Positions 6,701-50,844 of a DNA stretch of 64,000 nucleotides are shown here, piece after piece (the stretch's first letter is position 1; every line of letters starts with the position of its first letter). A model generated the notes under the pieces. That model worked only from the letters and a program-made list of their open reading frames with translations, searched no databases and was not told the origin of the DNA. Source of the DNA: Ferrimonas marina. Lineage in GTDB: Bacteria; Pseudomonadota; Gammaproteobacteria; Enterobacterales; Shewanellaceae. The stretch covers positions 496,001 to 560,000 of the forward strand of contig NZ_FQXG01000002.1 in the NCBI RefSeq assembly GCF_900129905.1, in the 5' to 3' direction. A program made the translations under genes and the position numbers.

Positions 6701-6730
6701 TGATTTATCAGCAGGAATTGCAGCTGTGGC

Positions 6731-30121: not shown

Positions 30122-31012
30122 ATGCCCAGAACCAGCCTTGATCAACTCAACGCCTTCGTTGCAGTGGCGCAGCATGGCTCATTCAGCCAGGCCGCCCGGG
30201 TACTGAGAAAGGACCGCGCCACCTTGCACTCCCAGGTGGGGGATCTGGAGATCGACTGGGGCGTCACCCTGTTTGATCGCAGTGGCCGCTCACCCTCGCT
30301 CACCGCCGAGGGCCACAGCCTGCTCAGCCAGGCTCGTCATATCCTCTACCAGCTCAATGCGCTGGAAAACGCCTGCGATGCCATCGCCCAGGGGCACGAG
30401 CATGAGCTCACCGTGCACCATGATATGTCGATCCCCTGCGAGATGATCCGCAGTTTGGATGCGCAGGTTCGCGACGCCTTTCCCCACACCCAGCTCAACT
30501 GGCTGCATCGCAGCCGGGAGGAGTCGGCAGCGGCCTTACTGCGCAAGGAAGCGGATCTGGCCGTGATGCTCACCGCCGGACAGGTGGTACCCACCGAGGG
30601 CTTGAGCTTCACCAACCTTGGCTATCCCCGCTTTGCCTTCTTTGCCTACAAGGATGCGCCGCTGGCCCAGCAACAGAGCGTGTCACTGGCGGATCTGGAG
30701 CGCCATCGCCAGTACCTCGCCGAGAACTTTGCCGACATCCTCAAAACCCCGCTGGCGATGTCGGCCCAAACGGTACGGGTGAGCAACACCGACGTGCTGC
30801 TGGCGCTGCTCAAAAACGGTGGTTATGCCCTGCTGCCCTACCACCTGTTGGACGCCGAACCCTATCGCGACCAGTACCGACCGTTGCCGCTGGACTTCAT
30901 GGTGCAGGATGGTCGGGTCGGCTACGTGCTGCTGAGCCTCAGCCGCAGCGGCGGGCCAGCTAAGGCATTCCTGCAGCAGCGTATTGAGGAGGCTTTTAGG
31001 ACTATGTGCTAA
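30122..31012 (+). CDS. LysR-family transcription regulator
   Basis: 296 residues. The N-terminal HTH is SLDQLNAFVAVAQHGSFSQAARVLRKDRATLHSQVGDLEIDWG, with GVTLFDRSGRSPSLTAEG completing the winged helix. The remainder is the substrate-binding-like effector domain. It is divergent from the exported amidase gene and has a perfect palindrome in the shared intergenic region. Probably it senses the amidase's substrate or product. It is the last GC-rich gene before the AT-rich island. Confidence 0.9.
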   Translation: MPRTSLDQLNAFVAVAQHGSFSQAARVLRKDRATLHSQVGDLEIDWGVTLFDRSGRSPSLTAEGHSLLSQARHILYQLNALENACDAIAQGHEHELTVHHDMSIPCEMIRSLDAQVRDAFPHTQLNWLHRSREESAAALLRKEADLAVMLTAGQVVPTEGLSFTNLGYPRFAFFAYKDAPLAQQQSVSLADLERHRQYLAENFADILKTPLAMSAQTVRVSNTDVLLALLKNGGYALLPYHLLDAEPYRDQYRPLPLDFMVQDGRVGYVLLSLSRSGGPAKAFLQQRIEEAFRTMC

Positions 31013-31455
31013 TCCCCAACAACTAACTAAAAAAATAATCAGGCAGCACACGATTCACTCAAATTACAGCTTTTAATCACAGTTTTCACTGAGTTGCACA
31101 AAAACTGTTCTATCATGTTGATATATATTGCTCATCTGATAAGTTCAAGCTAGCAAGTTATCGCTAGGATACATCAATTTTATGATGTAACGCTGTATTG
31201 CTAGCTCTTAGAGAGTCATCTTATCAAAGTACTTCACTTGATATCTTCGATGAGAGTGATGTGAAAATGAGTCGCCCGAATACAATGTACCTACACAGTA
31301 AGCGATTTATAATTAATTTATATTTTTCCACATCCAAACCCTCTTCTTTAATATGGTAGAAAAGCAATCTTAAGCAGTATATTGGATTAATTTAATTTTA
31401 TAAGTAAACAACCACAACCAAGATACATGGCCACGTAAAAAAACAGGCATATAAA
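31013..31455. other. AT-rich intergenic stretch at the left edge of the island
   Basis: 443 bases without a convincing gene. Base composition changes sharply here from GC-rich to strongly AT-rich. It contains a nested inverted-repeat structure at 31137-31226 (separate entry) and must hold the promoter of the two-gene operon. No integrase gene or tRNA is seen. Confidence 0.6.
31137..31226. repeat. Nested inverted repeats (possible structured RNA or operator)
   Basis: Three pairs of arms lie one inside the other: TGATAAG (31137-31143) with CTTATCA (31220-31226); AGCTAGCAA (31148-31156) with TTGCTAGCT (31198-31206); ACATCA (31171-31176) with TGATGT (31183-31188). Together they could fold into one 90-base branched structure upstream of the island operon. 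Role unknown. Confidence 0.55.
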
Positions 31456-32052
31456 ATGTATGAAACAATATCCACACTACCACAAACAGTATATATTGGA
31501 ATCGGAACTGTAATAGCCGCATTTGTTGCCGGGTTAATATCGGTGGTTAATACAACGATATCCAAAGAAAACAAAATATCAGAATTTAGACAGGCTTGGA
31601 GTGAAGCTATTATCGATGAGGTATCGACATATATAAGCCTAGTTTCAAAAATTCATGTCTCATGGTTAACATCAAGATCTAAAGGAATATCAGGAGCAAC
31701 ATTCTTAGAGAGTGAAGTAAATACTATAAGAGAAATGCAGGCTTTACAGCACAAAATAACCCTTAGATTACATGAAGAAAAACATGCCAAAATAATAGAG
31801 CATTTAAAGAGAATTGACTTAATAATATGCAACAACAATATAGAGCAAAAAGAAGCAGACCTAGAACATCTAATTGAGTCACTCTCATCAGATACAAAAA
31901 CAACAATTAAGCAAGAATGGATAAAAGTTAAGCTAGGAGAAATTCATTTTATTTGGCTTAGAAGAATAGGGTACTTCCTTTCAGTTTCTTTAGCATCTCT
32001 AATATTCTCAACTTGCTTGTTATATATTTACTTTATGATTAAACAGGGTTAA
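31456..32052 (+). CDS. Two-TM protein, partner of the Sll1717-type ATPase
   Basis: 198 residues. One hydrophobic helix is near the N-terminus (VYIGIGTVIAAFVAGLISVV, ~12-31) and another at the C-terminus (IGYFLSVSLASLIFSTCLLYIYFMI, ~170-194). Between them is a ~130-residue, highly charged, helical region, likely cytoplasmic. No family is recognised. The gene is strongly AT-rich, like the ATPase gene that follows 3 bases after its stop, so the two form an operon acquired together. In known two-gene defence systems such a protein would be a membrane effector or anchor controlled by the ATPase; this is inference. Confidence 0.7.
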   Translation: MYETISTLPQTVYIGIGTVIAAFVAGLISVVNTTISKENKISEFRQAWSEAIIDEVSTYISLVSKIHVSWLTSRSKGISGATFLESEVNTIREMQALQHKITLRLHEEKHAKIIEHLKRIDLIICNNNIEQKEADLEHLIESLSSDTKTTIKQEWIKVKLGEIHFIWLRRIGYFLSVSLASLIFSTCLLYIYFMIKQG

Positions 32053-32055
32053 GAA

Positions 32056-33609
32056 ATGAACAACCTAAGAAGCTTGAGTAATCTTTTCTTTGGCGATTCA
32101 GCGGAAAAAGAAGCCAGAATCAGAAACGAGGTTTTTGTAGAACCCAGACAATTTAAAAAGTTGCTTAAATTTCCTAGATCCAATCACAAAATTATTGTTG
32201 GAGACAAAGGTTGTGGTAAATCTATGCTGCTCAATGTCATAAATGAGTCAGTTCTTGACTCAAATACACTATCGATGCTGATAACGCCACACAATATAGT
32301 TTGTGATCCTATAGGTGAGCAGTCTACTATATCTGACAAACAGTCAGTCGCTTATGATCTTCTTCTCGAACTTGCAGTTAAAGAGATAGATAGAATCTGT
32401 AATACATCAGAGACAAATATCATAAATAATGAGCAAAACAAAGAGGTTAAGGCAGCAAGATTTAGAGCATTCCTTGAGGAAAAAGGAAATGTATCTGATT
32501 ATTTCAATGACCATTCCGAAGGAATAAGCTTTAAGAGAAACAATCGAAGCCGGCTTGCCAATAAACTAAAGAACATGTTGGTGGAAAAAGATGACAACAT
32601 ATGGATCATGATTGACGATGTAGACACTGCATCGATACTAAAAAGCACCTCCAATTCGTATGATTACTCAGTTTGCTGGGCGATAATAAGTGCCGCAATT
32701 AAATTATCAAATGATTTTTTTAAAATCAGGGTTTTGATATCTGTGAGAACGGATATATGGCACATAATGGAAAAGAATAAATTCCTTGGTCGAGACATAA
32801 GAGACAAAATAACCAACCCTTTCAGACTAAACTTCACTGAAGAGGAGATTGAAGCCATCTTCCTAGTTCGGCTTAATAGAGCTGCTTTAGACCTCGATCC
32901 AAGCTACATCATAGGTGAGGGACGAGTTCCATATCGACAATTTTTTGCTGATAGTAATTATAACCTACCAGGTAAGAAAGGTAGCAAGAAGTATTGGTCA
33001 AAATGGATTGCCCAACAGTCAAGAAATAAGCCTAGGGACATGGTTCAGTTAGTACAAAATTTAATTGAATCAGCTGAGGATGAAGCTGAAAAAAATGGAG
33101 TTAATGGTGAAGCTCTTATAAATGACGAATGTGCTAACAAAGTAATTCTTGATTTTGCTAAAAGCAGGATTGATAATCTTGAGACAGAATTTCAAGAGAT
33201 TTGCCCTCAAATAGGATATCTCGTTAAAGATGTCTCTAAGCACATGTGTATACTTAGAAAACAATACAGAGGACAAGGAAGAGACTATAGTTTTTCGTAT
33301 CAAGAAATCATAGAGTATTTATCAAAGTACCCGTCAAGACGAAAAATAACTATTGATAAAATTTCAATGTCATCAGGAAAAAACACTGATGCCATCAAAC
33401 TACTCGGGTTGCTTTATATGTCTAATTTTATAAATGCAAGAAAGCTAGTGGACTCAGGGAAAAGTGACCTTTACACACATGAGACCTATAACGAGTATCC
33501 AGACCTAATTAGTGAAGACAAGATTAACGATCTACAAAGTTATCGATGGGAAATCCATCCTGTTTTTCGCTCTTACCTTGATTCTATCAAAGATGACCTT
33601 ACCGCTTAG
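32056..33609 (+). CDS. P-loop ATPase, Sll1717-like
   Basis: 517 residues. The start NLFFGDSAEKEARIRNEVFV is like the Sll1717-type P-loop ATPases. Walker A is GDKGCGKS (49-56); Walker B is IWIMIDDVD with D187-D188; a sensor-like VLISVRTDIW follows. The C-terminal ~130 residues look like winged-helix domains (YSFSYQEIIEYLSKYPSRRKITID...). This layout resembles STAND/KAP-type regulatory ATPases. It lies 3 bases after the two-TM gene and has no known function. Codon use is AT-rich, unlike neighbours, pointing to transfer. A phage-defence role is possible but unproven. Confidence 0.8.
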   Translation: MNNLRSLSNLFFGDSAEKEARIRNEVFVEPRQFKKLLKFPRSNHKIIVGDKGCGKSMLLNVINESVLDSNTLSMLITPHNIVCDPIGEQSTISDKQSVAYDLLLELAVKEIDRICNTSETNIINNEQNKEVKAARFRAFLEEKGNVSDYFNDHSEGISFKRNNRSRLANKLKNMLVEKDDNIWIMIDDVDTASILKSTSNSYDYSVCWAIISAAIKLSNDFFKIRVLISVRTDIWHIMEKNKFLGRDIRDKITNPFRLNFTEEEIEAIFLVRLNRAALDLDPSYIIGEGRVPYRQFFADSNYNLPGKKGSKKYWSKWIAQQSRNKPRDMVQLVQNLIESAEDEAEKNGVNGEALINDECANKVILDFAKSRIDNLETEFQEICPQIGYLVKDVSKHMCILRKQYRGQGRDYSFSYQEIIEYLSKYPSRRKITIDKISMSSGKNTDAIKLLGLLYMSNFINARKLVDSGKSDLYTHETYNEYPDLISEDKINDLQSYRWEIHPVFRSYLDSIKDDLTA

Positions 33610-34061
33610 CCGATGGAAAAACCATCCCATAATAGGAATAGCCGCAGAATAGAGAAGCATTAATATTCTGCGGTATCAATTCCCTTATTGAAAATTAAAA
33701 TATTCAAAGGGCGACCGCAATGCCAAAAACACATTTTAAGTATATTTGCAAATACTTACGTTAACTGTTTTTGCTCTGCTAGCTAGATGAGTGGCTTGTA
33801 TTTTTTTTGGCGCAGTCTAACCATTAAATATGCTCACAGCCTTTAATTACTCTAGACAACTTACAAGAGCCTTTCTTTTGCTGCAAGAAGGAAACAAACT
33901 GCCAAGTCTTACCCTTCTCTGCGAAAACCGAACGGGGTAATCGCTTCACCACACTTCCGCTTGCGCATCTTTCTCAGCCATAATCAGGTTAACTGATTGT
34001 TTTAATGATGACTTGCGCTGAAGGTTCAGGTCATCGCAAGCACCTACTGAGGTCGATACCG
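33610..34061. other. AT-rich intergenic stretch at the right edge of the island
   Basis: 452 bases with no convincing gene. An inverted repeat, CCGCAGAATA (33642-33651) / TATTCTGCGG (33664-33673), lies 33 bases after the ATPase stop and may end transcription, though no T-run follows. Composition returns to GC-rich near 33,900. The promoter of the RND operon must lie at the right end. Confidence 0.55.
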
Positions 34062-35153
34062 ATGCATCGCACGCTCAACAAACTGGTTTCCACCACCCTA
34101 CTGGCCAGCGCCCTGTTCGTGGGGCCGCTGGCCAGTGTCTTCGCCGAAGAGGCCACGCAGGTCGACGTCTACTACCCCACCACCGACCGCCACCAGCGTA
34201 GTCTGACGCTCACCGGCACGGTTGAGGCAGTCCAGCACTCCCAGCTCGCCACCCTGCGCGATGGTGTGGTGGCGGAGATCTACGTCGACCGGGGCGACCG
34301 GGTGGAGAAGGGCCAGAAGTTGCTCAAGCTCGATGCCCGATTGATGGAGCTGGAGATCGAGCGCTACCAGGCCGAGGTGCGCTCCGCCAAGGCGGCCAAA
34401 ACCGAGGCCACTCGCCTGTACGAAGAGGTGCTGGGGCTGTCGGAGCAGCAGTTGATCCCCAAAACCCAGATGGAGGAGCGGCTGTCGGCGGCGGTGGTGG
34501 CGGACGCCGAGCTTAACCGGGTCGAGGCGCTGCTGGCCCTGCGTGAGGAGATCCTCGACCGGCATATCCTGTACGCGCCCTTTGCCGGGGTGATCTCAGA
34601 GCGCCAGATCAACCTGGGGGAATGGGTTACCCCGGAGGCGAGCGTGTTTACCCTGGTCGACCAACAAAACCTGCGCCTCTCGTTGCAGGTGCCGCAGGAA
34701 TACTACGCCCGCCTGGCGGATGTCTCGGACGCCACCGTCACCCTGCTGCCGGAAACCCCCACCCAACAACCCAGCGAAGCCAAACTCAGCACCCTGGTTG
34801 AGGTGGTGAACGACAACAGTCGAACCCTGACCGCACTGGTAGACCTGCCGCCCAACTCCGGCTGGCTGGCCGGCATGTCGGCACGGGCGGTGATCCAGCT
34901 GCCCCGCAGCGATCTCAGCATCAGCTGGATCCCCCAGTCCGCAGTCAAATCCCATCCCGATGGTGGCGCCAGCGTGTTCGCGGTTGAGCAGGACACCGCC
35001 AAGCGCTACCAGGTGACCATCATCGAACGCCAAGGCGAGCGCCTGGCGGTACAGGGCCTGCCGATTGGCCCCGGCGTGGTGATCACCGGCATCGAGCTGC
35101 TCAACGACGGCGATCCGGTGCAGATCCAGAACATCACCGGTAACTCGCTATGA
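34062..35153 (+). CDS. RND efflux periplasmic adaptor (membrane fusion protein)
   Basis: 363 residues from the ATG at 34062 (GAGGT 8 bases upstream); the frame is open from 34005. A signal peptide (LVSTTLLASALFVGPLASVFAEE) precedes the lipoyl half-motif (GTVEAVQHSQLATLRDGVVAEIYVDRGDRVEKGQ), an alpha-helical hairpin, the second lipoyl half (DRHILYAPFAGVISERQINLGEWVTP), and beta-barrel and proximal domains. No lipobox is seen. It links the inner-membrane pump encoded next to an outer-membrane channel. The stop overlaps the permease start by 4 bases (ATGA). Confidence 0.92.
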   Translation: MHRTLNKLVSTTLLASALFVGPLASVFAEEATQVDVYYPTTDRHQRSLTLTGTVEAVQHSQLATLRDGVVAEIYVDRGDRVEKGQKLLKLDARLMELEIERYQAEVRSAKAAKTEATRLYEEVLGLSEQQLIPKTQMEERLSAAVVADAELNRVEALLALREEILDRHILYAPFAGVISERQINLGEWVTPEASVFTLVDQQNLRLSLQVPQEYYARLADVSDATVTLLPETPTQQPSEAKLSTLVEVVNDNSRTLTALVDLPPNSGWLAGMSARAVIQLPRSDLSISWIPQSAVKSHPDGGASVFAVEQDTAKRYQVTIIERQGERLAVQGLPIGPGVVITGIELLNDGDPVQIQNITGNSL

Positions 35154-38100
35154 TTGCCGCTGCCGTCAAACACAGCACCCTGGTGGTGGTGATCACCCTG
35201 ATCGCCACCGTGCTGGGCGTAGTCGCCGCGATCAATATCCCGGTGCAGATGATCCCGGACTTGGAGGTGCGCACCATCACCGTCCAAACCGGCTGGCCCG
35301 GCGCGACCCCCCAGGACGTGGAGAAGGAGATCCTGATTGAGCAGGAACGCTACCTGCGCAGCCTGCCCAACCTCAATCGTATGGTCTCTTACGCCCGCAT
35401 GGGCCAGGCCACCATCGAGCTGGAGTTTCCCTTCGGCGTGGAGGTGAACGATGCCCTGATCCGGGTGAACAACGCCCTGAGTCAGGTGCCCGCCTACCCG
35501 GAAAACGTCGACCAGCCCCGGCTCTATTCCAGCGCCTTCTCCTCCAACGCCTTCATGTTCTTTGTGCTGCAACCCCTGCCGGGCAATCCGCTGCAGCTGG
35601 ATGTCGACATGCTGCGGGATTTCGCCGATGACTATGTCCGGCCCCGGATGGAGAGCGTCGAGGGCGTCTCCGAGGTCAGCGTCAATGGCGGGGCCGAGCG
35701 GCAGCTGCAGATCCGGGTCGATGCAGCCAAGCTGGCCAAGCGTGGCATCAGCCTGACCGAGCTGCGCAGCGCCATCCGCAGTCGCAATAACGACACCTCG
35801 GCCGGAGACATCGAAAGCGGGTCCAGCCGTTACCTGCTGCGGGTGATCGGCCGGTTTGAGCAGGTCAGTGAGCTGGAGAACCTCATCATCAGCCGCCGCG
35901 GCGACGCCAACATCCTGCTGCGCGATGTCGCCACCGTCACCCTAGACCATTTTGAAACCCGCTCCATGGCCTACTACAACGGCCAGCGCTCGCTGAGCCT
36001 GCGGGTGATGCGGGAGAGTGGCTCCAACGTGCTGGCCATCAAGGAGGCGATGGTGCCACTGGTGGCCGAGATCAACGAGCAACTGCTGCAGCGCAATGGC
36101 CTGGAGCTGAAGCTCACCTCCGACGACGTACGCTACGTGCAAAGCTCGCTGAAAAACGTCTGGATCAACCTCTCCCTCGGTGCTCTGCTCGCTACCCTGG
36201 TGATGTACCTGTTCCTGCGCTCCGGCCGCGCCACCCTGGTGGGGGTGATCGGCATCCCCATCTGTACCATCGCCGCCTTCTTCGCCCTGATGATGACCGG
36301 CCGCACCATCAACGTGATCTCCCTGGCCGGCATCGCCTTTGCCATCGGCATGACGGTGGACAACACCATCGTGGTGCTCGAGTCCATCATGCAGGCCCGG
36401 GCCAAAGGGGTCAGCAAGGTGCAAGCGGCCATCGACGGCGCCAAAGAGGTGTGGCCGGCGGTGCTCGCCTCCACCGCCACCACGGTGATGGTGTTCGCCC
36501 CCATCCTGTTTGTGGTGCAGGAAGCGGGGCAGCTCTACTCCGACATCGCCATCGCCATCTCCGGCGCCATCATCGCCTCCATGCTGGTGGCGATGTTCCT
36601 GGTGCCGGTCGCCCTGGCCCACTTCACCCGGGAAAACGGCGCCAAGCAGCTCAAGGAGATGAAGCTATCCAGCCGCTTCCTTAGCTTGGCCAGCTTCTTT
36701 GCCCAGTCCCGCCGCCGGGCACGGCTGTGGTCGCTGGGCTTTATCGTCCTAATTTTGGGTGGGGCCTACCTGCTGATGCCCGCCGCCGAGTACCTGCCCG
36801 AGGGGGAGGAGCCCAAGGCGTTCTCCATGATGATTGCGCCGCCAAGCTACAACCTCAGTGAGATGGCGGTGATCGGGGCCGAGCTGCGGGAATACTTCGA
36901 GGGCCATCTCAATGCCGATGAGGCAGACTTCCGCGCCGGCAAAACCGACATGCCGCCACTGGCCTACTACTCCATGGACGTCTCCATTGGTCGCATCTGG
37001 TTCTTGAGCGCACCGGTGGACTCCGCCCACATCACCCAGATGATGAAGGCCATCACCGAGAAGTTTCAGAGCTACCCCAACATGCGCGCCTTCTCCTCCC
37101 GCGGTTCCATCATCTCCAGTAACGATGGCGGCACCCGGGCGGTGGTGGTCGACCTCTCCGGCAGCGAAACTGTGCCGCTGTACCAGGCGGCGGATGCGGT
37201 CTACCGCAAGGCTGACGAGCTGTTTGACGACCCCCAGCTCAACTCCGCCCCGGGCTCGCTCAGCCTCGACCAGCCGCTGATTGAGATCTTCCCCCGCTGG
37301 CACCGCCTGGCGGAGCTGGGCATCGACAGCAGCGACTTTGGCTACGCCATTGCGGCGATGAGTGACGGTGCCTTTGTCGACGAGTTCATCCTCGGTGACG
37401 ACAAGGTGGATATCTTCCTGTTCAGCGGTGCCGGCAACGAGCAGAGCATCGACCAACTGGCGGAAACCCCGCTGGTGACCCCGGCGGGCAACGTGCTGCC
37501 GCTGCACGCCCTGGCGGATCTCAAGCGCAGCCGCGACAGCAACTCGATTCGACGGGTTGGCGGCAACAAGACCGTCAGCGTCTACATCATCCCGCCGCGG
37601 GACATCGCGCTGGAAACCGCCGAGCAGATGGTGCGTGAGCAGTTGCTGCCGGAGCTGTGGAGTGAGGGCAAGATCCCCCAGGGCATTCGAGTGGAGATCA
37701 GCGGTGCCGCCGATCTGCTCGACGCCACCCGCGCCTCGCTGTCGAACAACTTCGCCGTGGCGCTGATCCTCATCTACCTGCTGCTAGTGGCGATCTTTAC
37801 CCACTGGCGCTATCCGCTGTTTATCCTCGCCACCGTGCCGCTGGGCATGGCCGGCGGCCTGCTCGGGCTGGTGCTGGTGAACACCATTAACCTGGGCTTT
37901 GCCGCCATCGGCCTCAACAGTACCCACCAGCCGTTCGATATGATCACCATGCTCGGCTTCCTGATCCTGTTGGGGACCGTGGTCAACAACCCCATCCTTA
38001 TCGTCGACCAGACCCGGCGCAACGTGGTGGAACAGGGCATGGCGGTGCGAGAGGCGGTGGTCAATGCCGTCAGTAAGCGGCTCAAACCCATATTGATGTC

Positions 38101-38332
38101 CAGCGCCACCACCATCTTTGGCCTGGCACCGCTGGTATTGATCCCCGGTGAGGGCACCGAGCTGTATCGCGGCGTGGGCGTTATCGTACTGTCCGGGATC
38201 TTCGCCTCGGCGCTGCTGACCCTGACCTTCCTGCCGGCGCTGCTGGTGGCGGTACTGAAGGACCCGCCAATCCGCCAGGTCGCATCGGCAGAACAGGAGA
38301 TGCCCGAACAACGGGTGGCTAACCATGGTTAG
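35150..38332 (+). CDS. RND efflux permease (AcrB/MexB superfamily)
   Basis: 1060 residues, the usual RND length, with 12 TM segments and two large periplasmic loops. Family motifs are present: GWPGATPQDVEKEILIEQE near the start, GIAFAIGMTVDNTIVVLES in TM4, and STATTVMVFAPI. In TM4 the usual Asp-Asp pair of HAE pumps is Asp-Asn (TVDN), so the proton path may differ and the pump belongs to a divergent clade. No outer-membrane factor gene is adjacent. The substrate (drug, lipid, or metal) is unknown. It is cotranscribed with the adaptor. Confidence 0.92.
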   Translation: MIAAAVKHSTLVVVITLIATVLGVVAAINIPVQMIPDLEVRTITVQTGWPGATPQDVEKEILIEQERYLRSLPNLNRMVSYARMGQATIELEFPFGVEVNDALIRVNNALSQVPAYPENVDQPRLYSSAFSSNAFMFFVLQPLPGNPLQLDVDMLRDFADDYVRPRMESVEGVSEVSVNGGAERQLQIRVDAAKLAKRGISLTELRSAIRSRNNDTSAGDIESGSSRYLLRVIGRFEQVSELENLIISRRGDANILLRDVATVTLDHFETRSMAYYNGQRSLSLRVMRESGSNVLAIKEAMVPLVAEINEQLLQRNGLELKLTSDDVRYVQSSLKNVWINLSLGALLATLVMYLFLRSGRATLVGVIGIPICTIAAFFALMMTGRTINVISLAGIAFAIGMTVDNTIVVLESIMQARAKGVSKVQAAIDGAKEVWPAVLASTATTVMVFAPILFVVQEAGQLYSDIAIAISGAIIASMLVAMFLVPVALAHFTRENGAKQLKEMKLSSRFLSLASFFAQSRRRARLWSLGFIVLILGGAYLLMPAAEYLPEGEEPKAFSMMIAPPSYNLSEMAVIGAELREYFEGHLNADEADFRAGKTDMPPLAYYSMDVSIGRIWFLSAPVDSAHITQMMKAITEKFQSYPNMRAFSSRGSIISSNDGGTRAVVVDLSGSETVPLYQAADAVYRKADELFDDPQLNSAPGSLSLDQPLIEIFPRWHRLAELGIDSSDFGYAIAAMSDGAFVDEFILGDDKVDIFLFSGAGNEQSIDQLAETPLVTPAGNVLPLHALADLKRSRDSNSIRRVGGNKTVSVYIIPPRDIALETAEQMVREQLLPELWSEGKIPQGIRVEISGAADLLDATRASLSNNFAVALILIYLLLVAIFTHWRYPLFILATVPLGMAGGLLGLVLVNTINLGFAAIGLNSTHQPFDMITMLGFLILLGTVVNNPILIVDQTRRNVVEQGMAVREAVVNAVSKRLKPILMSSATTIFGLAPLVLIPGEGTELYRGVGVIVLSGIFASALLTLTFLPALLVAVLKDPPIRQVASAEQEMPEQRVANHG

Positions 38333-38403
38333 TGTTTTGGTGTGAAACCTGTCGATGAAAGAGGTTAGAGTGGAGTGAAACCCAAGCCCACAGGAGTGCT
38401 GCA

Positions 38404-42733: not shown

Positions 42734-43025
42734 CAGCCTGTTTCAGCCAAAACAGAGCGAATATCACGGTCAGAGTCCGTCAGTGCAACTCAAGGAATGA
42801 TATCCGTACAAAGGCGAAGCTGACTGAATATTTTTCACTCCAAGCCCACATGTTGAATTGAGAGCCAACAAAAGGTTATCGGAAAGTAAGGACGGCCAAG
42901 GGGTAGCGGGCCTATTTCAACGGCTCCGCCCCCCTGAAGCCAATTTGTTAAATTCACCTATCCATCGATACCAATCTCGTGGTGTCGTATTGGGACAGGG
43001 TGATATGCGATTCAGGGAAGACGCA

Positions 43026-45695
43026 ATGAAACTCATACCAGTAACCCTCCTGAGTATTTTCCTTCTCACTGCCTGTGGTGGGGGTGGCGAAGGCGGAAGC
43101 AACGAAAACAATGGAAGCAATGGAAGCAATGGAAACACAGGGGATAAGTCATCTGTGACCGAAAACATCGATGGACTCTGGTACATCGAGTACGAAAACT
43201 GCTTAGAAACTATTCAATTTGATGATGACGGAACGTTTCGACTGGACTCCGGAGAGTTTTATGCGCATGGGGATTACCAATTTGAGCAGACCGTTTCCGC
43301 CGGCGATCGGCACCGTCTCGATTTGAAACTGACCCAATGGAATGGTGGTGAAGATTGTATCATTGAACCCGGAACAATCGAGAGGGAAGTCACCGCTCAT
43401 ATTAGTTTTCCCAATGGTATGACCATGACTTGGTATGAAGACGAAGAGACAGAATCGGCCGTCGGAAGTTATACCCGAGACAATCCGCTACAGCTGGATC
43501 AAACCGAGATCACTGTAACGGGTGAAGAAACCATTCAGTTGGCGATACAAGGAAAGTTCGCACCTGCAGTCAATCCTAAACTACTTTATGGCCCCGACGG
43601 AGCGTCGCTGAACGAAAAGGGTGAAGTCATCTGGGCAGCGAAAACCCCATTATTTGGCCCCCAGCAGTTCCGGCTGGGAGTTTCAAGTGACGACAGCCTA
43701 TCTTCCGCGGAATTAGTCCTAACCGTACAGCCACCACAAGCCAAACTTCCAACCACCCGTGTCACTCCTCAAATCAACCATCGTGCTCACTCAATCTTTG
43801 TCGGTGACTTTGTCGGAAATGGCAAGAAACAGGTTTTGCTATCCGGTGCCCAACGGCAACTTACCATTTTGGAATACCAAGGAGGTGACTACCGGCAGAT
43901 CTGGAGTTACCCATTTGATTTTGAAACCATCTATGGGGATATCTTGGTTCAAACAATTGATCTCGACGGCGATGGGAAAAGCGAAATCCTGCTACGAAAT
44001 CAGGAGGGAATCTATCTGATCACCGATCTGAACGAACCCGCCACACTGCTGCTCCCCTTAGAGGATAGCGCGTTTGGTCACTTTGAGATTGCTACACATA
44101 AGGACAGCAGCCACTCACTGGTGGTTGGAGAAGGATATAAACTCCAAGTCTGGTCACTGGAAGAGCTCACATTGTCCCATGAGTTCAGCGTCAATAGTAA
44201 TGGGCTTTTTCAACTCGGTGATGTAGTTGGCGATCAACAACTGGAAGCCGTCTTTGCTAACGGCCAAGTATACAGATTGGCCGATGGAAACCTACTGTGG
44301 CACCACTCCGAAGAGTTTGGCAAACAGTTGGTACTGGCCGACGCCAGTGGCAATGGCCGCCTAGACATCATCGGCGCGCCAGATTGGGGTGACATTGTAA
44401 TATACGATGCACTACAACAGAGTGCAGTACAGACGATCCCCGGTTATAACAACTGCGGACTCCAAACAGCTGATCTTACAGGCAATGGAGATCTGGAAAT
44501 CGTAATCGGATTTTGCCAAGCGGGGACAGCCAAAGCTTTTGTTAAGGGTACCGACGGTTACAGCGAGTTGTGGCACAAAGAAGATGCGCTTCGTGGCCGG
44601 GACATTCAGTCCATCACCGTCGCTGACAGCAACAGTGATGGCGAACAGGAATTACTCTGGGGCTCTGATAGTAAACGTCTCTCTATCTTCAAACAAATCT
44701 CCTCTCCAGAGCTTGCTTGGAGCACTGGCTCTTCTCCAAAAGCCGAATCTTTTATGGCTGCCGGTTGGGGGCAAATCCGCCCAGGTTATGAAGCCGCTGT
44801 ATTCATCACGCCTCGTAGTCACTTCCCCATCACACCCGATGATCCTCATAGCAGAGAGGGGCAACGCTACATCCAAATGAACGAGCAGGGGGAACTAACC
44901 TTTAGTGGTCCGTTAGGAGATAGCTGGGATGACCTGTTAGCTGGAAAGTTGGCGGACATTGATCATGACGGATTTACCGAACTTGTATTTGCCCACGGAG
45001 AAAATTACGACTCCCAAGTGCTTGCCCATGAAGTAGACTCGAATACGGTGCGTTACAGTGAACCGCTTAGCAGCTACTCTAAAATCAGCCATATCCTGCT
45101 GCACGATCTCAATAACGATGGTTTTATGGATGCCATTGTCGCAGGCGAAAAAACAATACGGTTTATCGATATTAAAAACCATGTGGAGTTAGGCCGGTAC
45201 GAATTTCCCGATAATATCTCCGCAATCGCTCTCCAAACAGTGGGTGAAGAAATACAGATCGCAGTCTCCCTATACTACTCCAACCTAATGATGCTATCAG
45301 GGCAATCCGGAAGCTATCGACAATCAGCGAATCTGAACAATCGCACCTGTGAACAACTGGCTTTTAAAGGCGGCCAACTTATCTGTGCACAAGGTAGCGT
45401 AATTTATCGCTTCGACGCCGGTCTTAGCCCTATTTCAGAAACAGACTTTCGAACAGTGCAACTTGGAGATATACGCAAGATCATCCCCTTAGAACACGGC
45501 AACCTGATACTGGCGGCCACCCTAAATGAGCAGTACAAGATTGTTGAAGTCAACGAAGCTGCGCAAAAGGTAATCTGGCAAAGTCCACCATTGCTGGGGC
45601 GCGTGCTATCTGACTCTATGCACCTGATCAAGTCTGAAGAGGGACGCCATCGCTTACAAATAGGTACTGAGTCAGCTATGTATCTCACCCACTGA
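43026..45695 (+). CDS. FG-GAP/VCBS repeat lipoprotein
   Basis: About 889 residues from ATG 43026; the frame is open further upstream. The signal peptide ends in the lipobox LLTAC, then a Gly/Asn/Ser-rich tether. Residues ~35-150 resemble a lipocalin-like or C-terminal-type beta domain, then an Ig-like segment. The rest carries repeated Asp-rich loops of the FG-GAP/VCBS type: DLDGDGKSEILLRN, DASGNGRLDIIG, DLTGNGDLEIVIG, DSNSDGEQELLWG, DIDHDGFTELVFA and DLNNDGFMDAIVAG. They would form calcium-binding beta-propeller blades. It is clearly AT-richer than its neighbours. A surface adhesion or binding role is likely; the ligand is unknown. Confidence 0.8.
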   Translation: MKLIPVTLLSIFLLTACGGGGEGGSNENNGSNGSNGNTGDKSSVTENIDGLWYIEYENCLETIQFDDDGTFRLDSGEFYAHGDYQFEQTVSAGDRHRLDLKLTQWNGGEDCIIEPGTIEREVTAHISFPNGMTMTWYEDEETESAVGSYTRDNPLQLDQTEITVTGEETIQLAIQGKFAPAVNPKLLYGPDGASLNEKGEVIWAAKTPLFGPQQFRLGVSSDDSLSSAELVLTVQPPQAKLPTTRVTPQINHRAHSIFVGDFVGNGKKQVLLSGAQRQLTILEYQGGDYRQIWSYPFDFETIYGDILVQTIDLDGDGKSEILLRNQEGIYLITDLNEPATLLLPLEDSAFGHFEIATHKDSSHSLVVGEGYKLQVWSLEELTLSHEFSVNSNGLFQLGDVVGDQQLEAVFANGQVYRLADGNLLWHHSEEFGKQLVLADASGNGRLDIIGAPDWGDIVIYDALQQSAVQTIPGYNNCGLQTADLTGNGDLEIVIGFCQAGTAKAFVKGTDGYSELWHKEDALRGRDIQSITVADSNSDGEQELLWGSDSKRLSIFKQISSPELAWSTGSSPKAESFMAAGWGQIRPGYEAAVFITPRSHFPITPDDPHSREGQRYIQMNEQGELTFSGPLGDSWDDLLAGKLADIDHDGFTELVFAHGENYDSQVLAHEVDSNTVRYSEPLSSYSKISHILLHDLNNDGFMDAIVAGEKTIRFIDIKNHVELGRYEFPDNISAIALQTVGEEIQIAVSLYYSNLMMLSGQSGSYRQSANLNNRTCEQLAFKGGQLICAQGSVIYRFDAGLSPISETDFRTVQLGDIRKIIPLEHGNLILAATLNEQYKIVEVNEAAQKVIWQSPPLLGRVLSDSMHLIKSEEGRHRLQIGTESAMYLTH

Positions 45696-46158
45696 TTCAC
45701 TCAAGAGAATAGTTAGGTAGTACGACTCGCTGTCTTAAGCACACTAAGGAGCAGTGGGGAGGAGCGACCCAAATCCGGTGCTCCACCCACTTTTACTTTT
45801 GGGCAAGATTTGGGTTTGCAGTAGTCGCTACTATCCGAAACCAACAGCGAGGCATAGGGGATACCAAGGAGCCTAAAGGAGTACAAGAGGGACTCAGAGG
45901 CGAAGGCGCGAACACGCTAGAGAATCGGTCGCCGGACCACTGCCGGCAAAGTGAAGATGCAAACCTAAGAGTCTCGCAGCTCTGCCGCCTCTCTCTCCCT
46001 ACCCAAGACTCAGCACCTAAGACTCAGCGCCTACCGCACCGCGCCTGGCATTCGGCATCTAGCAATCAAAGGGGCGACAAAGTAAGTGGCCGGCAACGCC
46101 AAATAAGAGTGAGCTAGCCAGGGCCAACCTGAGTTAACAGCTCTGACCCCCGGTTCTT
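45696..46158. other. Intergenic stretch, no gene seen
   Basis: 463 bases between the FG-GAP lipoprotein and the outer-membrane barrel gene, which converge. No frame has a convincing start or composition. A short imperfect direct repeat, AAGACTCAGC (~46003-46030), is the only pattern noted. No clear terminator was found. Confidence 0.5.
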
Positions 46159-47403
46159 CTAATAGATGCCACTCAACACCAGTTGCCATTGGTTACGGCT
46201 TCCTTGTTGAGGCCAATCGAAACCCTGGTGACCAAGCTGCGCCGTGCTCATCCGATTGGCATTCCAGCTGCTGGCATATAGATATTCCAGCGCCACCTCA
46301 ATATGTTGGGAAGCCTGGTAACGCCAGGCAAAGGTCCAAGCTTTGCCATGACTGTCGTTGATATCAACCGGGTTTTGGTCGGTGTCGACGGTTTTGAAGT
46401 CGTCATAACGCAGGCTGAACCGATGTTGGTGATGTTTGTAGCTGGTGAGCACATACCAGGCATCGAAATCGACGTTTACCCCTTTGCTATCCCCCATCAC
46501 GGTGCTGCCATCCATCCACTGGGCGAGGATACGCCATTGTCGATTCAGCAGGTGTTTAGCAGAGACCGTCCAAAATTTGGTGTGCCAAGCGTATTGGCCC
46601 TCATCATTGACAGCGAACGGGTCAGCTCGATTGTCATACCGGTACAGGCGTACCTCGGTATTGCGCCGGTGACGCCAATGGCCACCGAGGTAGTAGCCAA
46701 CGCGGTTGTCTGTTTCTATAAATGGCTCTACCCAGTTAGGTTGCAACTCAATGGGGCCGGTGATACCGGGATAATCAGCGAAGGCAACACGTTCGCCCAA
46801 TAGTGTTTGCCGGTTATGCAGCGCCCAGCCACGCCAGCTGAGCAGCGTCCCGGCGCCGTCATTGGCGCCGAAAACCGAAGACACAAAACTCAGGGTGTGA
46901 TTGGAGTGATATAACTTGCCGGGAACGGTGATCTGCCATTCGCCGCCGATGGCCCGAACCTCTTCGGCAATCCAGCTGTTTATCGCGGAAAAGGTATAGG
47001 TATAGGGCGATTGCCAGCCGGGCTTGGGGTTCTCAAAGCCAAAGTTAGGGTAGAACGCGCCGACACGAACTTTGTGCTTCACGCCCGAAGTCAGCGGCTG
47101 GAAGGTCAATGCCGCCTCGGTGAATCCCAGATGCTTTTGACCGTCGGGATAGTAGTAAGCGGTTGCCTGGAGTTGCCAAGGGTTATCGAAATCGATCTGC
47201 GCCTCCAGCATCGCTTGCGACAGGACAAGCCCATCCGAGTGGGGATCGTAGCGTGTGATCCCGGTGCCTTCCCTAATCCAGCTTTGCATCCAAGGTGCAT
47301 CATTGCTGGTTTGGACCCAGGCAACATCGGCAGCCGCCTCAACACTGAACTCCGCCGCCAGAGAAATGGGGCTGAACAGAAAAAGGAGCGCCAATCTTCT
47401 CAT
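46159..47403 (-). CDS. Outer-membrane beta-barrel protein of the cupredoxin/GGDEF-EAL operon
   Basis: About 414 residues from ATG 47403, whose A overlaps the stop of the GGDEF-EAL gene (TAATG). The signal peptide is LALLFLFSPISLAAE. The mature protein is full of alternating aromatic strands (LQATAYYYPDG, GYYLGGHWRHRRNTEVRLYRYDN, HTKFWTVSAKHLL, HRFSLRYDDF, AWTFAWRYQ, HIEVALEYLYAS), and its last residue is Tyr (QLVLSGIY), as in outer-membrane barrels. It is porin-like of unknown substrate. The frame upstream to 47481 lies inside the neighbour and is not used. Confidence 0.8.
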   Translation of the reverse strand: MRRLALLFLFSPISLAAEFSVEAAADVAWVQTSNDAPWMQSWIREGTGITRYDPHSDGLVLSQAMLEAQIDFDNPWQLQATAYYYPDGQKHLGFTEAALTFQPLTSGVKHKVRVGAFYPNFGFENPKPGWQSPYTYTFSAINSWIAEEVRAIGGEWQITVPGKLYHSNHTLSFVSSVFGANDGAGTLLSWRGWALHNRQTLLGERVAFADYPGITGPIELQPNWVEPFIETDNRVGYYLGGHWRHRRNTEVRLYRYDNRADPFAVNDEGQYAWHTKFWTVSAKHLLNRQWRILAQWMDGSTVMGDSKGVNVDFDAWYVLTSYKHHQHRFSLRYDDFKTVDTDQNPVDINDSHGKAWTFAWRYQASQHIEVALEYLYASSWNANRMSTAQLGHQGFDWPQQGSRNQWQLVLSGIY

Positions 47404-49751
47404 TATGCCGGGGTCCTCTGGTGCGAGAACTCTTCGAGCCAGGCGCTGAAATCGGCAGGCTTCAATGGTCGGCTCATCCAATAACCCTGGGCATATTCCA
47501 CCCCATAACGCTTGAGGATTTGGAGTGATGCTTCATCCTCAACGCCCTCAGCCACAACCGAGAGCCCCAGGTTATGTGCCAGCTCAACACAGGCTTTGAC
47601 CAGGATGCAGTCCTGTTGATCCGAGGCGAGGTTGAGCACAAAGGATTTGTCGATTTTCAGCTCGCTCACGGGCATTTGCTTAAGCTGGCTCATGGAGGAG
47701 TAGCCAGTGCCAAAGTCATCAATGGACAGCGCAATCCCCATGTAACTGAGCAGGCTAAGGGCGCTCATGGCTTGCTCAGGCTCAGCCATCAGTGCGCTTT
47801 CGGTTACTTCAAACGTCAACACGGAAGGCGACAGCCGCCGTTTGGACAACGCCTCACTGACGAAAGCCGGCAGCTCGTTATCGACCAGGTCCAAAGCTGA
47901 AATATTCACGGCGACTTGAACGTCTATGCCATCTGATCGCCACCGCAGATGCTGATCAAGTGCGGTAAGGATCACCCATTTAGTCAGTTCCCGAATCGCC
48001 CCGCTTTGTTCAGCCAGGGGGATAAACTCATCGGGCCCTACCAAGCCATGCTCCGGGTGGTACCACCGAACCAGACACTCCGCTTTGCTAACCACACCCT
48101 CCGAGATGTTGAGCTTGGGTTGGTACAGCAGCTGAAGCTCGTCTCGTTCAATCGCTCCGCGTAACTCCGTCATTAGGCTCAGGCGCTGTACCGAGTGCTG
48201 ATTAAGCTCTTCACGGTAGAAGACCACCTTGTGGTGAGAGCGCTTGGCGTGCCCAAGCGCGATATCAACGCTCTGCATCATGCCACCGACGTCCTGCGCA
48301 TTCTTGGGATAGAGGGAAACACCGAACCCCGCTTCGATATCAATCAGTACACCATCGATGTCAAACGCAGGCTCAAAAAGCTTACGGTATTGATCTACGT
48401 CGTCACTTAACCGGTGCTCATGGATATCGGTCAGCAGGATCATAAATTCGTCCTCACCAACGTGCGCAGAATAGGCATTGGCATCAGCCTGATTTTTTAT
48501 ACGCTGGGCCACTAGCTGCAGCAACTTGTCACCCACATCGTGACCCAAGGTGTCATTGATTTCTTTAAACCGATCAAGGTCTAAGGTGAGCACCGCGAAA
48601 GCTCGACCAGGCTGCATCTCAATCAACCTGGCCATGTACTTAACGAACGCATTTCGGTTGGGCAAGCCACTGAGACTGTCGAAATAAGCGAGTGTATTAA
48701 TTTCCTGCTCGCGCTGAATAATGCCCTGTTGCATCGACTGAAACGCACTGCTCAAGCTTTGCACTTCGGTTGTTTCATAGGCCGGCAGGGAACTGGAATA
48801 ATCACCACGCTGGATCAACTCCGCCTTCGCTACCAACTGGCGCAAAGGCCGACTGATGCTGTTAGCGACATACACGCTCACCACACTTGCAATGATTGCC
48901 ACAATGATTAAAACAAGCACGAACTCATCGAGCAGATTAATAAAATTCAGATAGGCCGTATCACTGGGCAAGACATAAGCGAATTGGAGATCAGAGCCAG
49001 ACACGGCGTCGGTATGAAAGCGCCAGATCAAGTGCTCTTCGGGTAACAGTATTTTGCCAATGCGATGTTCGGCATGATCTAGATAGTTTTGTTCTTGTTG
49101 CTGATCCAGCAATGACTTGAGTGTACTAGAGATGGTTTGACCTGCTTTGAATGCCACCAGATCCAAACCAAGCAGCTGGCGGGTCTGCTGGCTGACCAGA
49201 TTGCGCTCAAGCGCCTCACCGATCACCAGCCAACCATCGGGGGTCGGTTTTTGTTCCAAAAATCGATAAGGTGCCGCTGTCACCAGAAAGGCTTTGTTAT
49301 TGAGGGTAATGAAGCTATACCCCGGGCGGCTTAACCTAGCGGGCAGATCGTCAGGTAGCGCAATGGAGCTCCCGGCCAAACGCCGATACTCGGCGTCGTA
49401 AGCAACGATGAAGTCCGTTTGACTGCGTTGTTGCAGGTTATACAGAGCAGCATTGAGTGACGCGGGATCATCTTGCGCATCGCCCAGTAGCTGTTTGGTA
49501 TTGAAGTCTTTAGCGAACGTCGTCAGCGCATTTATTAAGCTGCTGGCCTGGTTATCTATCATCAACAGAAAGACGGAACTGGCCACGTTAAGCCGCGTCT
49601 CAAGTTGGTTGTTGGTATGACGAAAGGCAGCGTTCAGCGTTGTGATGGATACCAAGGTCAGACCGAGAAACAGCACCAGGGCAAAGGACAACAAAATCCG
49701 TCGCCGTAGGCTGGTTCCGCTCGAACTTGATCCCCGATTAATAATCATCAA
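47403..49751 (-). CDS. GGDEF-EAL c-di-GMP signalling protein with periplasmic sensor
   Basis: 782 residues. TM1 (~20-40), a periplasmic Cache/sensor-like region (~45-265), TM2 (~272-296), HAMP (~297-350), GGDEF (~355-510) and EAL (~525-775). The GGDEF signature is HVGEDEF (430-436), so the second Gly is Glu and cyclase activity is doubtful. The EAL motif reads ECL (E558-C-L) with its catalytic Glu kept; N616, E648, D678-D679 (IDDFGTGYS) and K699/K702 are also present, so phosphodiesterase activity is likely. It overlaps the cupredoxin gene by 14 bases and the barrel gene by one. Confidence 0.9.
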   Translation of the reverse strand: MMIINRGSSSSGTSLRRRILLSFALVLFLGLTLVSITTLNAAFRHTNNQLETRLNVASSVFLLMIDNQASSLINALTTFAKDFNTKQLLGDAQDDPASLNAALYNLQQRSQTDFIVAYDAEYRRLAGSSIALPDDLPARLSRPGYSFITLNNKAFLVTAAPYRFLEQKPTPDGWLVIGEALERNLVSQQTRQLLGLDLVAFKAGQTISSTLKSLLDQQQEQNYLDHAEHRIGKILLPEEHLIWRFHTDAVSGSDLQFAYVLPSDTAYLNFINLLDEFVLVLIIVAIIASVVSVYVANSISRPLRQLVAKAELIQRGDYSSSLPAYETTEVQSLSSAFQSMQQGIIQREQEINTLAYFDSLSGLPNRNAFVKYMARLIEMQPGRAFAVLTLDLDRFKEINDTLGHDVGDKLLQLVAQRIKNQADANAYSAHVGEDEFMILLTDIHEHRLSDDVDQYRKLFEPAFDIDGVLIDIEAGFGVSLYPKNAQDVGGMMQSVDIALGHAKRSHHKVVFYREELNQHSVQRLSLMTELRGAIERDELQLLYQPKLNISEGVVSKAECLVRWYHPEHGLVGPDEFIPLAEQSGAIRELTKWVILTALDQHLRWRSDGIDVQVAVNISALDLVDNELPAFVSEALSKRRLSPSVLTFEVTESALMAEPEQAMSALSLLSYMGIALSIDDFGTGYSSMSQLKQMPVSELKIDKSFVLNLASDQQDCILVKACVELAHNLGLSVVAEGVEDEASLQILKRYGVEYAQGYWMSRPLKPADFSAWLEEFSHQRTPA

Positions 49752-50385
49752 ATTCGTCTGCTAAGCCACCAAAGTTCGGGGAGTGTAAAGGTGCTTTGAG
49801 CATCCATTCTTGTTGAAGCGCTGCACCAATGGTGACGTCTTGCTCGCGCTGTAAGTCGATCTCTTGCATCAATGGATGCCATACCTTCAATCGGTACTCA
49901 CCCGCTGGCAGGTCAATCCCGATCTCACCATCGGCTGCGCTGATCCCGAACCAGGGTGATTCGGCCACATAGATATAGCCAATCATCCAATCATGGATGT
50001 TGCAGCCCAGCGCCACAATCCCAGGGGTTTCGAACTCCAAGGGTTCCGGGATCTTGTCTTTATACAGTCGCAGCTCAAAGGTCTTGGGATCCGAAAACGA
50101 ATAAACGTGGTGCTTAATGGAGTCCGAGTTGGGGAAACTGACGCGCTGTCCGGCCTGGATCGCCAATACATAGGGCTTGAACTGCCGGTCAATTTGGTCG
50201 AGCACGGCGGGCTCTGATGGAATAAGCGGCGGGATCGTCGTGCTGTCTTTGGGGATTAACGCAGCGACGGCATGCTCAATGGGCTCTCCTTTCGAAGTAA
50301 GCACCTTGATACCAAAGCGTTCCGCTTGCGCCCCGGTTGAGACAACAAGACAAAATATGGCAATCATCGCTGTTTGAGCTGACAT
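49738..50385 (-). CDS. Cupredoxin-like periplasmic protein (methylamine utilization-type)
   Basis: About 215 residues from ATG 50385. A signal peptide (AMIAIFCLVVSTGAQAE) precedes a transthyretin-like strand region and a cupredoxin domain. Potential type-1 copper ligands are His92/His93 (SIKHHVYSFSD) and C128, H131, M134 (GCNIHDWM). Similar proteins are annotated as methylamine utilization proteins. The tail has an acidic end (GLADEFDDY). It is the first gene of a three-gene operon; its stop overlaps the GGDEF-EAL start. I infer it senses or binds copper or redox state and reports to the sensor; not proven. Confidence 0.82.
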   Translation of the reverse strand: MSAQTAMIAIFCLVVSTGAQAERFGIKVLTSKGEPIEHAVAALIPKDSTTIPPLIPSEPAVLDQIDRQFKPYVLAIQAGQRVSFPNSDSIKHHVYSFSDPKTFELRLYKDKIPEPLEFETPGIVALGCNIHDWMIGYIYVAESPWFGISAADGEIGIDLPAGEYRLKVWHPLMQEIDLQREQDVTIGAALQQEWMLKAPLHSPNFGGLADEFDDY

Positions 50386-50844
50386 GTCCCAGGTCACGTT
50401 TTTTTTATTTATGTTATCTGGATTTAGCTCTAGGCAACAACCTGTATTTTATCGACTTTATCAGTCCAGCCTGGGCAGCTAGCCCGCGATTAGATGCTCG
50501 AGTATCAAGCCAAAAACGGCCCATACCTTTGCTTCAGTGGGCTGCCGCTGGGTGAGCGAAGCGAAGGTACTAGAAAAGCGCTGTCGCTGTTGCCATGGTT
50601 GAGTACCCACAACAAATCACCCGTCGGCAAAAAAGGGAACTTGGCAGCAGGGGAGATGCGCACCTCGCCGTCCTGTCATGTGGCGGTGAATCCCTCAGGC
50701 TCCCCCCGTCTCAACGACAAAAAGCCCGAAGGCTTCCACCTTCGGGCTTTTGTGTTCAGTCACCACAGGTTAGCACCGGCTCATGTTCTCCTGGCGCCAA
50801 AAAGCGTCGCTACCAAGCGGTGGGTCTGGCTGGGTATCCAAGCA
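50386..50844. other. Intergenic stretch with terminator
   Basis: 459 bases. It holds the promoter of the cupredoxin operon (left part) and a terminator for the thioredoxin-like gene (50719-50751). I see no gene in it; the open frames here overlap the terminator and lack good starts. Confidence 0.55.
50719..50751 (-). terminator. Rho-independent terminator
   Basis: The 13-base arms AAAAGCCCGAAGG (50720-50732) and CCTTCGGGCTTTT (50739-50751) enclose a 6-base loop. On the minus strand they are followed by a T-run, ending transcription of the thioredoxin-like gene. Confidence 0.88.

What the first reader, a model, noticed from the sequence alone, without database searches (positions are those of the whole stretch)
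31013..34000. AT-rich two-gene island: two-TM protein plus Sll1717-like ATPase
Two genes 3 bases apart encode a two-TM protein with a large charged middle part and a P-loop ATPase with GDKGCGKS, an IDDVD Walker B and C-terminal winged-helix-like regions. Both are strongly AT-rich, while the LysR gene and RND operon on each side are GC-rich. No transposase or integrase is present. A membrane protein paired with a STAND/KAP-like ATPase is a typical design of anti-phage systems, but this pair matches no named system that I know. I rate it the strongest candidate for an undescribed system.
Basis: partly seen in the sequence, partly recalled or inferred. Interest (0 to 1): 0.72.

Follow-up and report, generated by a model that had tools for sequence, protein, structure and literature searches.

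The report
Foreign ATPase and membrane gene pair
Two foreign-looking neighbouring genes, one for an ATP-driven protein and one for a small membrane protein of a kind often seen in viral DNA, may form a virus-defence device, but the pairing turned up in no other sequence examined, so it cannot yet be called a conserved system.

Summary
In detail: two intact genes 3 bp apart (31456-32052, 32056-33609) in a 35% GC stretch within about 59% GC surroundings. The larger encodes a full-length member of NCBIfam's Sll1717 P-loop ATPase family (NF047389). Its model is nearest to RdrA (RADAR) and ORC/Cdc6 AAA+ ATPases, and it resembles, far below cut-off, the model of the validated anti-phage protein DS-41. 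It is accessory: found in 0 of 39 other relatives' genomes, and as a distant relative in 4 of 393 others in the order. The small gene belongs to a helical two-TM family without a convincing match in Pfam, NCBIfam, PHROGs or PADLOC; relatives are frequent in viral contigs and one is a single-gene cassette. The key claim, a conserved pair, is not supported: of 180 fetched loci, 75 hold the ATPase family, 98 the two-TM family, none both. Three other Sll1717 ATPases adjoin a different ~200-aa membrane family, but such neighbours are not above background. Best reading: a recently assembled two-gene defence cargo, AAA+ sensor plus membrane effector (0.42). Main rival: two self-sufficient cargo genes sharing a promoter (0.35).

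The parts
31013..31455 (.). AT-rich upstream intergenic stretch (33% GC), presumed promoter region
   Evidence: promoter-like matches in the region no more than in shuffles (13 found, mean 11.2)
31456..32052 (+). gene 1: 198-aa two-TM protein of an unnamed family frequent in viral contigs
   Evidence: no convincing match in Pfam, PADLOC, NCBIfam, PHROGs
31483..31551 (+). TM helix 1 (about residues 10-32)
   Evidence: hydropathy scan; within helix 10-75 of the model
31564..31614 (+). family motif 1 (about residues 37-53); this protein alone of 62 lacks the Arg at residue 53
   Evidence: part of this motif was also a search pattern
31906..31941 (+). family motif 2 (about residues 151-162), just before TM helix 2
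   Evidence: partly a search pattern
31963..32034 (+). TM helix 2 (about residues 170-193)
32045..32048 (+). AGGG, likely ribosome-binding site of gene 2 inside the end of gene 1
   Evidence: read from the sequence; inference
32056..33609 (+). gene 2: 517-aa P-loop ATPase, Sll1717 family (NF047389)
32200..32223 (+). Walker A, GDKGCGKS (residues 49-56)
   Evidence: G52, K55, S56 invariant in 53 sequences
32599..32625 (+). Walker B strand and IDDVD (residues 182-190)
   Evidence: D187, D188, D190 invariant in 53 sequences
33211..33603 (+). C-terminal winged-helix-like region with the WEIHP..R motif
   Evidence: secondary structure of the model; W498, E499, H501, P502, R505 invariant in 53 sequences, partly by construction, since this motif was the search pattern
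33610..34004 (.). AT-rich downstream stretch (39% GC) up to the RND operon

Best explanation
A horizontally acquired two-gene operon, probably an anti-phage device. The Sll1717 ATPase is a soluble AAA+ protein of the RdrA/ORC-Cdc6 kind that would sense infection (through its winged-helix end) and assemble on binding ATP. The two-TM protein, with its conserved helices on the cytoplasmic face of the membrane, would be the effector: once engaged it would disturb the membrane or block phage DNA entry. Shown here: gene structure, ATPase family, predicted folds, foreign composition, sporadic distribution, presence of relatives in viral contigs and gene cassettes. Inferred: co-transcription, physical partnership, topology, sensing, membrane effect, protection against phage.
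For: 3-bp spacing, same strand, like composition. Foreign GC; ATPase in 0 of 39 other relatives' genomes. Family membership. 39 of 53 family members, P0002 included, match the DS41_1 anti-phage model at E<=1e-3, best E 1e-14. RdrA of RADAR is the best structural match (E 5e-7), and RADAR has subtypes with Csx27 or SLATT proteins (one passage of PMC7699616; that these are small membrane proteins is recalled). Two-TM relatives: 117 matching stretches in viral contigs, with opposite-strand tail-like genes nearby in 14 and 15 of 74 cases for two neighbour clusters (identities by eye). Three other Sll1717 ATPases adjoin a ~200-aa membrane protein of one family (homology of the three: leave-out profile E 4e-39), in two separate parts of the tree.
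Against: No other instance of the pair in 180 loci. Small membrane neighbours are not above background: 3 of 65 ATPases against 6 of 227 other ORFs, p=0.42. Of six further members of that second membrane family none lies by an Sll1717 ATPase, and it is not related to the two-TM family by profile comparison (probability about 1%). An ATPase relative and a two-TM relative each occur as a one-gene cassette. No sign of a defence island among the window's other ORFs (25 of 38 families listed). 145 sampled neighbours of Sll1717 ATPases are mixed. P0001 lacks an Arg kept in 61 of 62.
Confidence: 0.42

Rival explanations
1. Two self-sufficient cargo genes that arrived together or one after another and share a promoter. 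The two-TM protein acts alone, as its relatives in viral contigs presumably do (for example superinfection exclusion), and the ATPase acts alone, as most relatives seen here appear to.
For: 0 of 180 loci hold both. The ATPase is a single-gene cassette in L138, between repeats at 3383-3462 and 4985-5066, and the two-TM gene is one in L027, between repeats at 5991-6113 and 6704-6826 (ORFs). Neighbours of Sll1717 ATPases are mixed. None of the four other members of P0002's clade (L133, L048, L034, L199) has a gene of the two-TM family on the stretch fetched; L133 has an ORF of 111 aa with two hydrophobic segments 233 bp upstream that the family profile does not match.
Against: 3-bp spacing and a shared, strongly foreign composition.
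Confidence: 0.35
2. A non-defence function, such as stress signalling, DNA uptake or a membrane-anchored regulator, that arrived by transfer.
For: Neighbours of Sll1717 ATPases include many housekeeping-type genes. The structural matches include ORC/Cdc6 and Vps4-like AAA+ proteins, so the fold does not decide the function. The two-TM model's weak best matches are mostly chemoreceptor ligand-binding bundles, with NarQ further down (E>0.1).
Against: Sporadic distribution, two plasmid relatives, viral contigs and a cassette fit defence or selfish cargo better; distant similarity to DS-41.
Confidence: 0.15
3. A decaying remnant of a larger mobile element, no longer functional.
For: AT-rich non-coding flanks of about 440 and 395 bp; P0001 lacks the near-invariant Arg.
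Against: Both frames are intact, the ATPase signature residues are kept, and both models are confident.
Confidence: 0.08

Closest known systems
NCBIfam NF047389, P-loop ATPase Sll1717 family
   Same: Nearly full-length match, 147.4 bits over a 75-bit cut-off; signature residues kept
   Different: P0002 lies on a very long branch (2.7) in a small deep clade with L133, L048, L034 and L199; no other member seen here has a two-TM-family gene beside it
DS-41 (DefensePredictor; NF053860 DS41_1)
   Same: Distant similarity over residues 10-142 around Walker A; DS-41 is among the systems reported as validated (PMC13092281, sections 5 and 15 read)
RADAR (RdrA with RdrB; subtypes with Csx27 or SLATT)
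   Same: RdrA is the best structural match of the ATPase; some subtypes add Csx27 or SLATT proteins, which are small membrane proteins (recalled)
   Different: No deaminase gene here; the ATPase is shorter (517 against about 780-850 residues); TM-scores to RdrA are low (about 0.2-0.3) and sequence identity 10-13%
SLATT-domain two-TM proteins
   Same: Small, two TM helices plus a helical part, found in defence operons (recalled)
   Different: P0001 matches no SLATT model; 2 of 62 in its alignment match SLATT_5 weakly (best E 7e-4)

Membership tests
Sll1717 P-loop ATPase (NF047389) | Score above the curated cut-off over the full length | tested here: met
   147.4 bits, cut-off 75, residues 15-508; all 53 members of A3 match at E<=1e-3
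DS-41 | NF053860 score above the cut-off | tested here: not met
   39.8 of 370 bits
RADAR | RdrB adenosine deaminase beside RdrA | tested here: not met
   Only two genes of any length in the island; PADLOC gives only a weak mad8 match for P0002 (E 1.3e-4) and no Rdr model
KAP/STAND NTPase | KAP or NACHT Pfam domain above the cut-off | tested here: not met
   No KAP match; NACHT at 15.3 bits under a 26.7 cut-off; only ORC-CDC6-like passes its cut-off, 28 against 27
SLATT | Match to a SLATT model | tested here: not met
   None for P0001
Conserved two-gene defence system | The two families found together in other genomes | tested here: not met
   0 of 180 loci; 75 hold the ATPase (72 distinct), 98 the two-TM gene (90 distinct), 7 neither. 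Limited to the sequences fetched
Anti-phage system | Reduces phage plating | not testable with these tools
   Needs a plaque assay

The most novel reading that the evidence does not exclude
The two-TM family is an undescribed, widespread virus-carried immunity or exclusion effector with a strict signature at the cytoplasmic face of the membrane. In this genome an RdrA/DS-41-like AAA+ ATPase has captured it, giving a new sensor-effector defence system, a snapshot of how such systems are put together from single cargo genes.
Probability: 0.25. Interest if true: 0.68.

Novelty: new variant of a known kind. Interest (0 to 1): 0.43.

Why it matters
If right, it adds a membrane-coupled branch to a barely studied ATPase family that has one distant validated anti-phage relative. 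It also points to a two-TM family without a name in the four libraries searched, with 117 matching stretches in viral contigs, as a likely phage-exclusion or immunity effector that can be tested directly. A pair made of two families that elsewhere in the sample live apart bears on how multi-gene defence systems arise.

Tried and rejected
Conserved pairing: rejected within the sample. Of its 180 loci some are copies of one another (72 distinct among 75 ATPase loci, 90 among 98 two-TM loci), and many stretches are cut by contig ends, so a partner beyond the end would be missed. Known system: in PADLOC P0002 matched only mad8, weakly, and P0001 only LeoB at E 0.056. Membrane-neighbour enrichment of Sll1717 ATPases: none; the three cases are kept only because they share one neighbour family. 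That family is not a distant form of the two-TM family, and six further members, from 368 other genomes and the plasmid collection, lie by no Sll1717 ATPase. RNA partner: two sub-threshold matches in Rfam, taken as chance. Clean empty site: G004 carries a PhnA-like and a 148-aa gene (named by eye) where the window has island plus RND operon, so a simple insertion cannot be shown. RND gene in the genus: by DNA search only short partial matches elsewhere, the best 70% over 212 bp; a diverged orthologue could be missed. Structural relatives of the two-TM protein: none at E<=1e-3 in PDB or BFVD. Sequence search of solved structures with A3: only weak mS29 matches (best E 0.006). Single-protein genome-contig scan: 16 stretches, no relative. 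Phage records: no match for either protein. E. coli genomes: no near (megablast) match. Plasmids: 2 records for the ATPase, 3 for the two-TM protein, all distant. Viral scans with A7 (73 stretches, none confirmed) and A5 (17 stretches, only L048 again). Class-level search with A5: 1 other of 368 genomes (G632). Literature: no paper in the held open-licence library holds 'Sll1717'; nothing outside that library was searched.

Limits. The invariance of some motif residues is partly built in, because searched with those motifs. Viral contigs holds only viral contigs, so frequency there says nothing about frequency in chromosomes; that many are prophages is inferred. 37 of the 117 relatives were not returned. 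Two of the 12 genomes (G340, G240) are weak and their surroundings were not fetched; nor was a wider stretch fetched for every match. The greedy ORF caller can miss or mis-start genes (the L138 ATPase start lies inside its left repeat, so the true start is further in); one search repeated the co-occurrence count on all frames. For one search, 217 neighbours of 100-700 aa were candidates and 145 were sent; 25 of 148 matched families were listed. For one search, 25 of 38 were listed. In the ATPase tree P0002, L034 and L133 are long branches and their joining may be an artefact.
Full report
The window carries two complete + strand genes, 31456-32052 and 32056-33609, three bases apart, in a stretch of 35.2% GC. 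2.5-kb windows of the 64 kb that do not overlap it average 59.0% with a standard deviation of 4.0 and a minimum of 48.7%. Third-position GC is 0.25 and 0.33, against 0.78, 0.83 and 0.87 in the LysR and RND genes. A likely ribosome-binding site for gene 2 (AGGG, 32045-32048) lies inside the end of gene 1 (read). ARAGORN finds no tRNA in the window; I see no convincing terminal repeat; Rfam gives only two sub-threshold matches in 30900-34200. LysR and RND are named by eye.

The ATPase. P0002 is a member of NCBIfam's Sll1717 P-loop ATPase family: 147.4 bits against a 75-bit cut-off, nearly full length. In an alignment with 52 relatives the Walker A and B residues, R231, P326, R327 and the C-terminal WEIHP..R motif are kept; the motif's invariance is partly built in, because it was the search pattern. 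The AlphaFold2 model is good (mean pLDDT 81.7, pTM 0.82). Foldseek places it nearest to RdrA of RADAR (E 5e-7), archaeal ORC2/Cdc6 and eukaryotic ORC subunits, with BrxC at rank 38. TM-scores are low (about 0.2-0.55), so this says AAA+ of the ORC/RdrA kind and no more. A second NCBIfam model, DS41_1_antiphage, matches P0002 at E 2.8e-10 and 39 of the 53 aligned members at E<=1e-3, best E 1e-14, but P0002 scores 39.8 bits against a cut-off of 370. DS-41 is among the systems that the DefensePredictor authors report as validated against phage (PMC13092281: sections 5 and 15 read; passages). So the family has one distant anti-phage relative, and P0002 is not itself a DS-41. In a tree P0002 sits on a very long branch with L133, L048, L034 and L199; the clade has full support, but the tool warns that long branches meet there.

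Distribution of the ATPase. It is in 0 of 39 other genomes of the relatives' set, and 4 of 393 other genomes of the order have a distant one. A profile of its own clade finds 1 other of 368 genomes of the class (G632). There are two distant plasmid relatives, five in viral contigs and 64 in genome contigs. In L138 it is a one-gene cassette of an integron-like array: repeats lie at both ends of the ORF. In G632 the gene lies in two pieces on two contigs, one beside an IS3-like ORF (by eye), and no two-TM-family gene is on the stretches fetched. Neighbours of Sll1717 ATPases are mixed: among 145 sampled neighbours (of 217 candidates) the commonest Pfam families occur 2-3 times, and the listed ones include many housekeeping types beside a few integrases, resolvases and a toxin (25 of 148 families listed). 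So it is accessory, but not visibly tied to defence islands.

The two-TM protein. P0001 belongs to a large family with two signatures, one just after TM1 and one just before TM2. P0001 had no convincing match in Pfam, PADLOC, NCBIfam or PHROGs, and the 62 members of its alignment gave only scattered weak hits; the most frequent was LeoBC, in 13 of 62, best E 3e-4. The model is confident and all-helical (mean pLDDT 92.9), with no match at E<=1e-3 in PDB or BFVD. By the positive-inside rule the conserved middle part should be cytoplasmic (inference). In viral contigs 251 stretches matched the search patterns, 117 encoded relatives and the best 80 were returned. Among 74 genes that my ORF calls recovered there, one opposite-strand neighbour cluster of 15 loci and one of 14 loci look like tail genes (by eye), a usual place for lysogenic cargo (recalled). 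In L027 a relative is a single cassette in an array with 20 repeat copies. P0001 falls with 20 sequences, all from viral contigs except one from a Proteus record identical to one of them, in a quick tree (SH-aLRT 86, long branches). It is the only one of 62 without the Arg at residue 53.

Is the pair a system? All frames of 180 fetched loci were scanned with both profiles: 75 hold the ATPase family (72 distinct), 98 the two-TM family (90 distinct), 7 neither, none both. The own genome has one match to each profile. A weaker claim, that Sll1717 ATPases tend to have some small membrane protein beside them, is not supported statistically: 3 of 65 against 6 of 227 other ORFs, p=0.42. Yet the three cases (L182, L141, L189) share one ~200-aa membrane family (a profile made without L182 finds it at E 4e-39 among 968 ORFs; pairwise E 2e-18), stand 21 bp away or overlap by a few bases, and fall in two separate parts of the ATPase tree. 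Six further members of that family (three in 368 other genomes, three plasmid records) lie by no Sll1717 ATPase. One follows an SMC-like 641-aa ATPase gene (L206, by eye), and another follows a 441-aa gene near an annotated restriction-modification system on a Vibrio plasmid (L209). It is not related to the two-TM family by profile comparison. So small membrane proteins do get attached to different cores, without a fixed rule. RADAR is a known parallel, with Csx27- and SLATT-associated subtypes (one passage of PMC7699616).

Genomic site. Of 13 other genomes of the genus only G004 has a long LysR match (84% over 866 bp). There the region runs from LysR through a PhnA-like gene and a 148-aa gene (by eye) to the sequence that in the window follows the RND operon. 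The RND gene has no close DNA match in the genus. So the whole block 31013-38335 differs between the two genomes, and a clean insertion of the two-gene island cannot be shown. The rest of the window gives no sign of a defence island: of 50 other ORFs, the listed PADLOC matches (25 of 38 families, each matched by one ORF) are mostly helicase models such as BrxH, DpdF and Cas3, with a phospholipase effector and a subtilase.

Verdict. Most likely a recently assembled, transferred two-gene defence cargo with an AAA+ sensor and a membrane effector (0.42). Two independent cargo genes sharing a promoter is nearly as likely (0.35). What is new is less the pair than the two-TM family itself, frequent in viral contigs and unnamed in the libraries searched, and the placing of Sll1717 ATPases near RdrA and DS-41.

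Noticed in passing
L182:5236-5847, L141:6939-7553, L189:6530-7129, L206:5291-6004, L209:3225-3839: A second ~200-aa membrane protein family (alignment A7) adjoins three Sll1717 ATPases, follows an SMC-like ATPase gene, and lies near a restriction-modification system on a Vibrio plasmid; it looks like a modular membrane partner.
   Followed up: partly
L138:3383-5066: An Sll1717 ATPase as a single-gene cassette in an integron-like array (Rhizobacter sp. Root1221).
   Followed up: partly
L027:5991-6826: A two-TM family gene as a single-gene cassette in an array with 20 copies of a 123-nt repeat.
   Followed up: partly
window 31013-38335: Island and RND operon together are replaced in the related genome G004 by a PhnA-like gene and a 148-aa gene (by eye); the RND gene has no close DNA match in 13 other genomes of the genus.
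   Followed up: partly
window 42858-50400: Several ORFs with lower third-position GC (0.49-0.63) than most of the window; possibly another acquired block.
   Followed up: no
L056:4925-5968, L058:2425-3375, L091:2245-4479: DNA cytosine methyltransferase-like ORFs (by eye) on the strand opposite to the two-TM gene in viral contigs; the largest neighbour cluster (15 loci) contains such an ORF.
   Followed up: no
L199:201-1682: A member of P0002's own clade lies at a contig end next to an IS3-like ORF, its tail on another contig; probably interrupted by the element.
   Followed up: no
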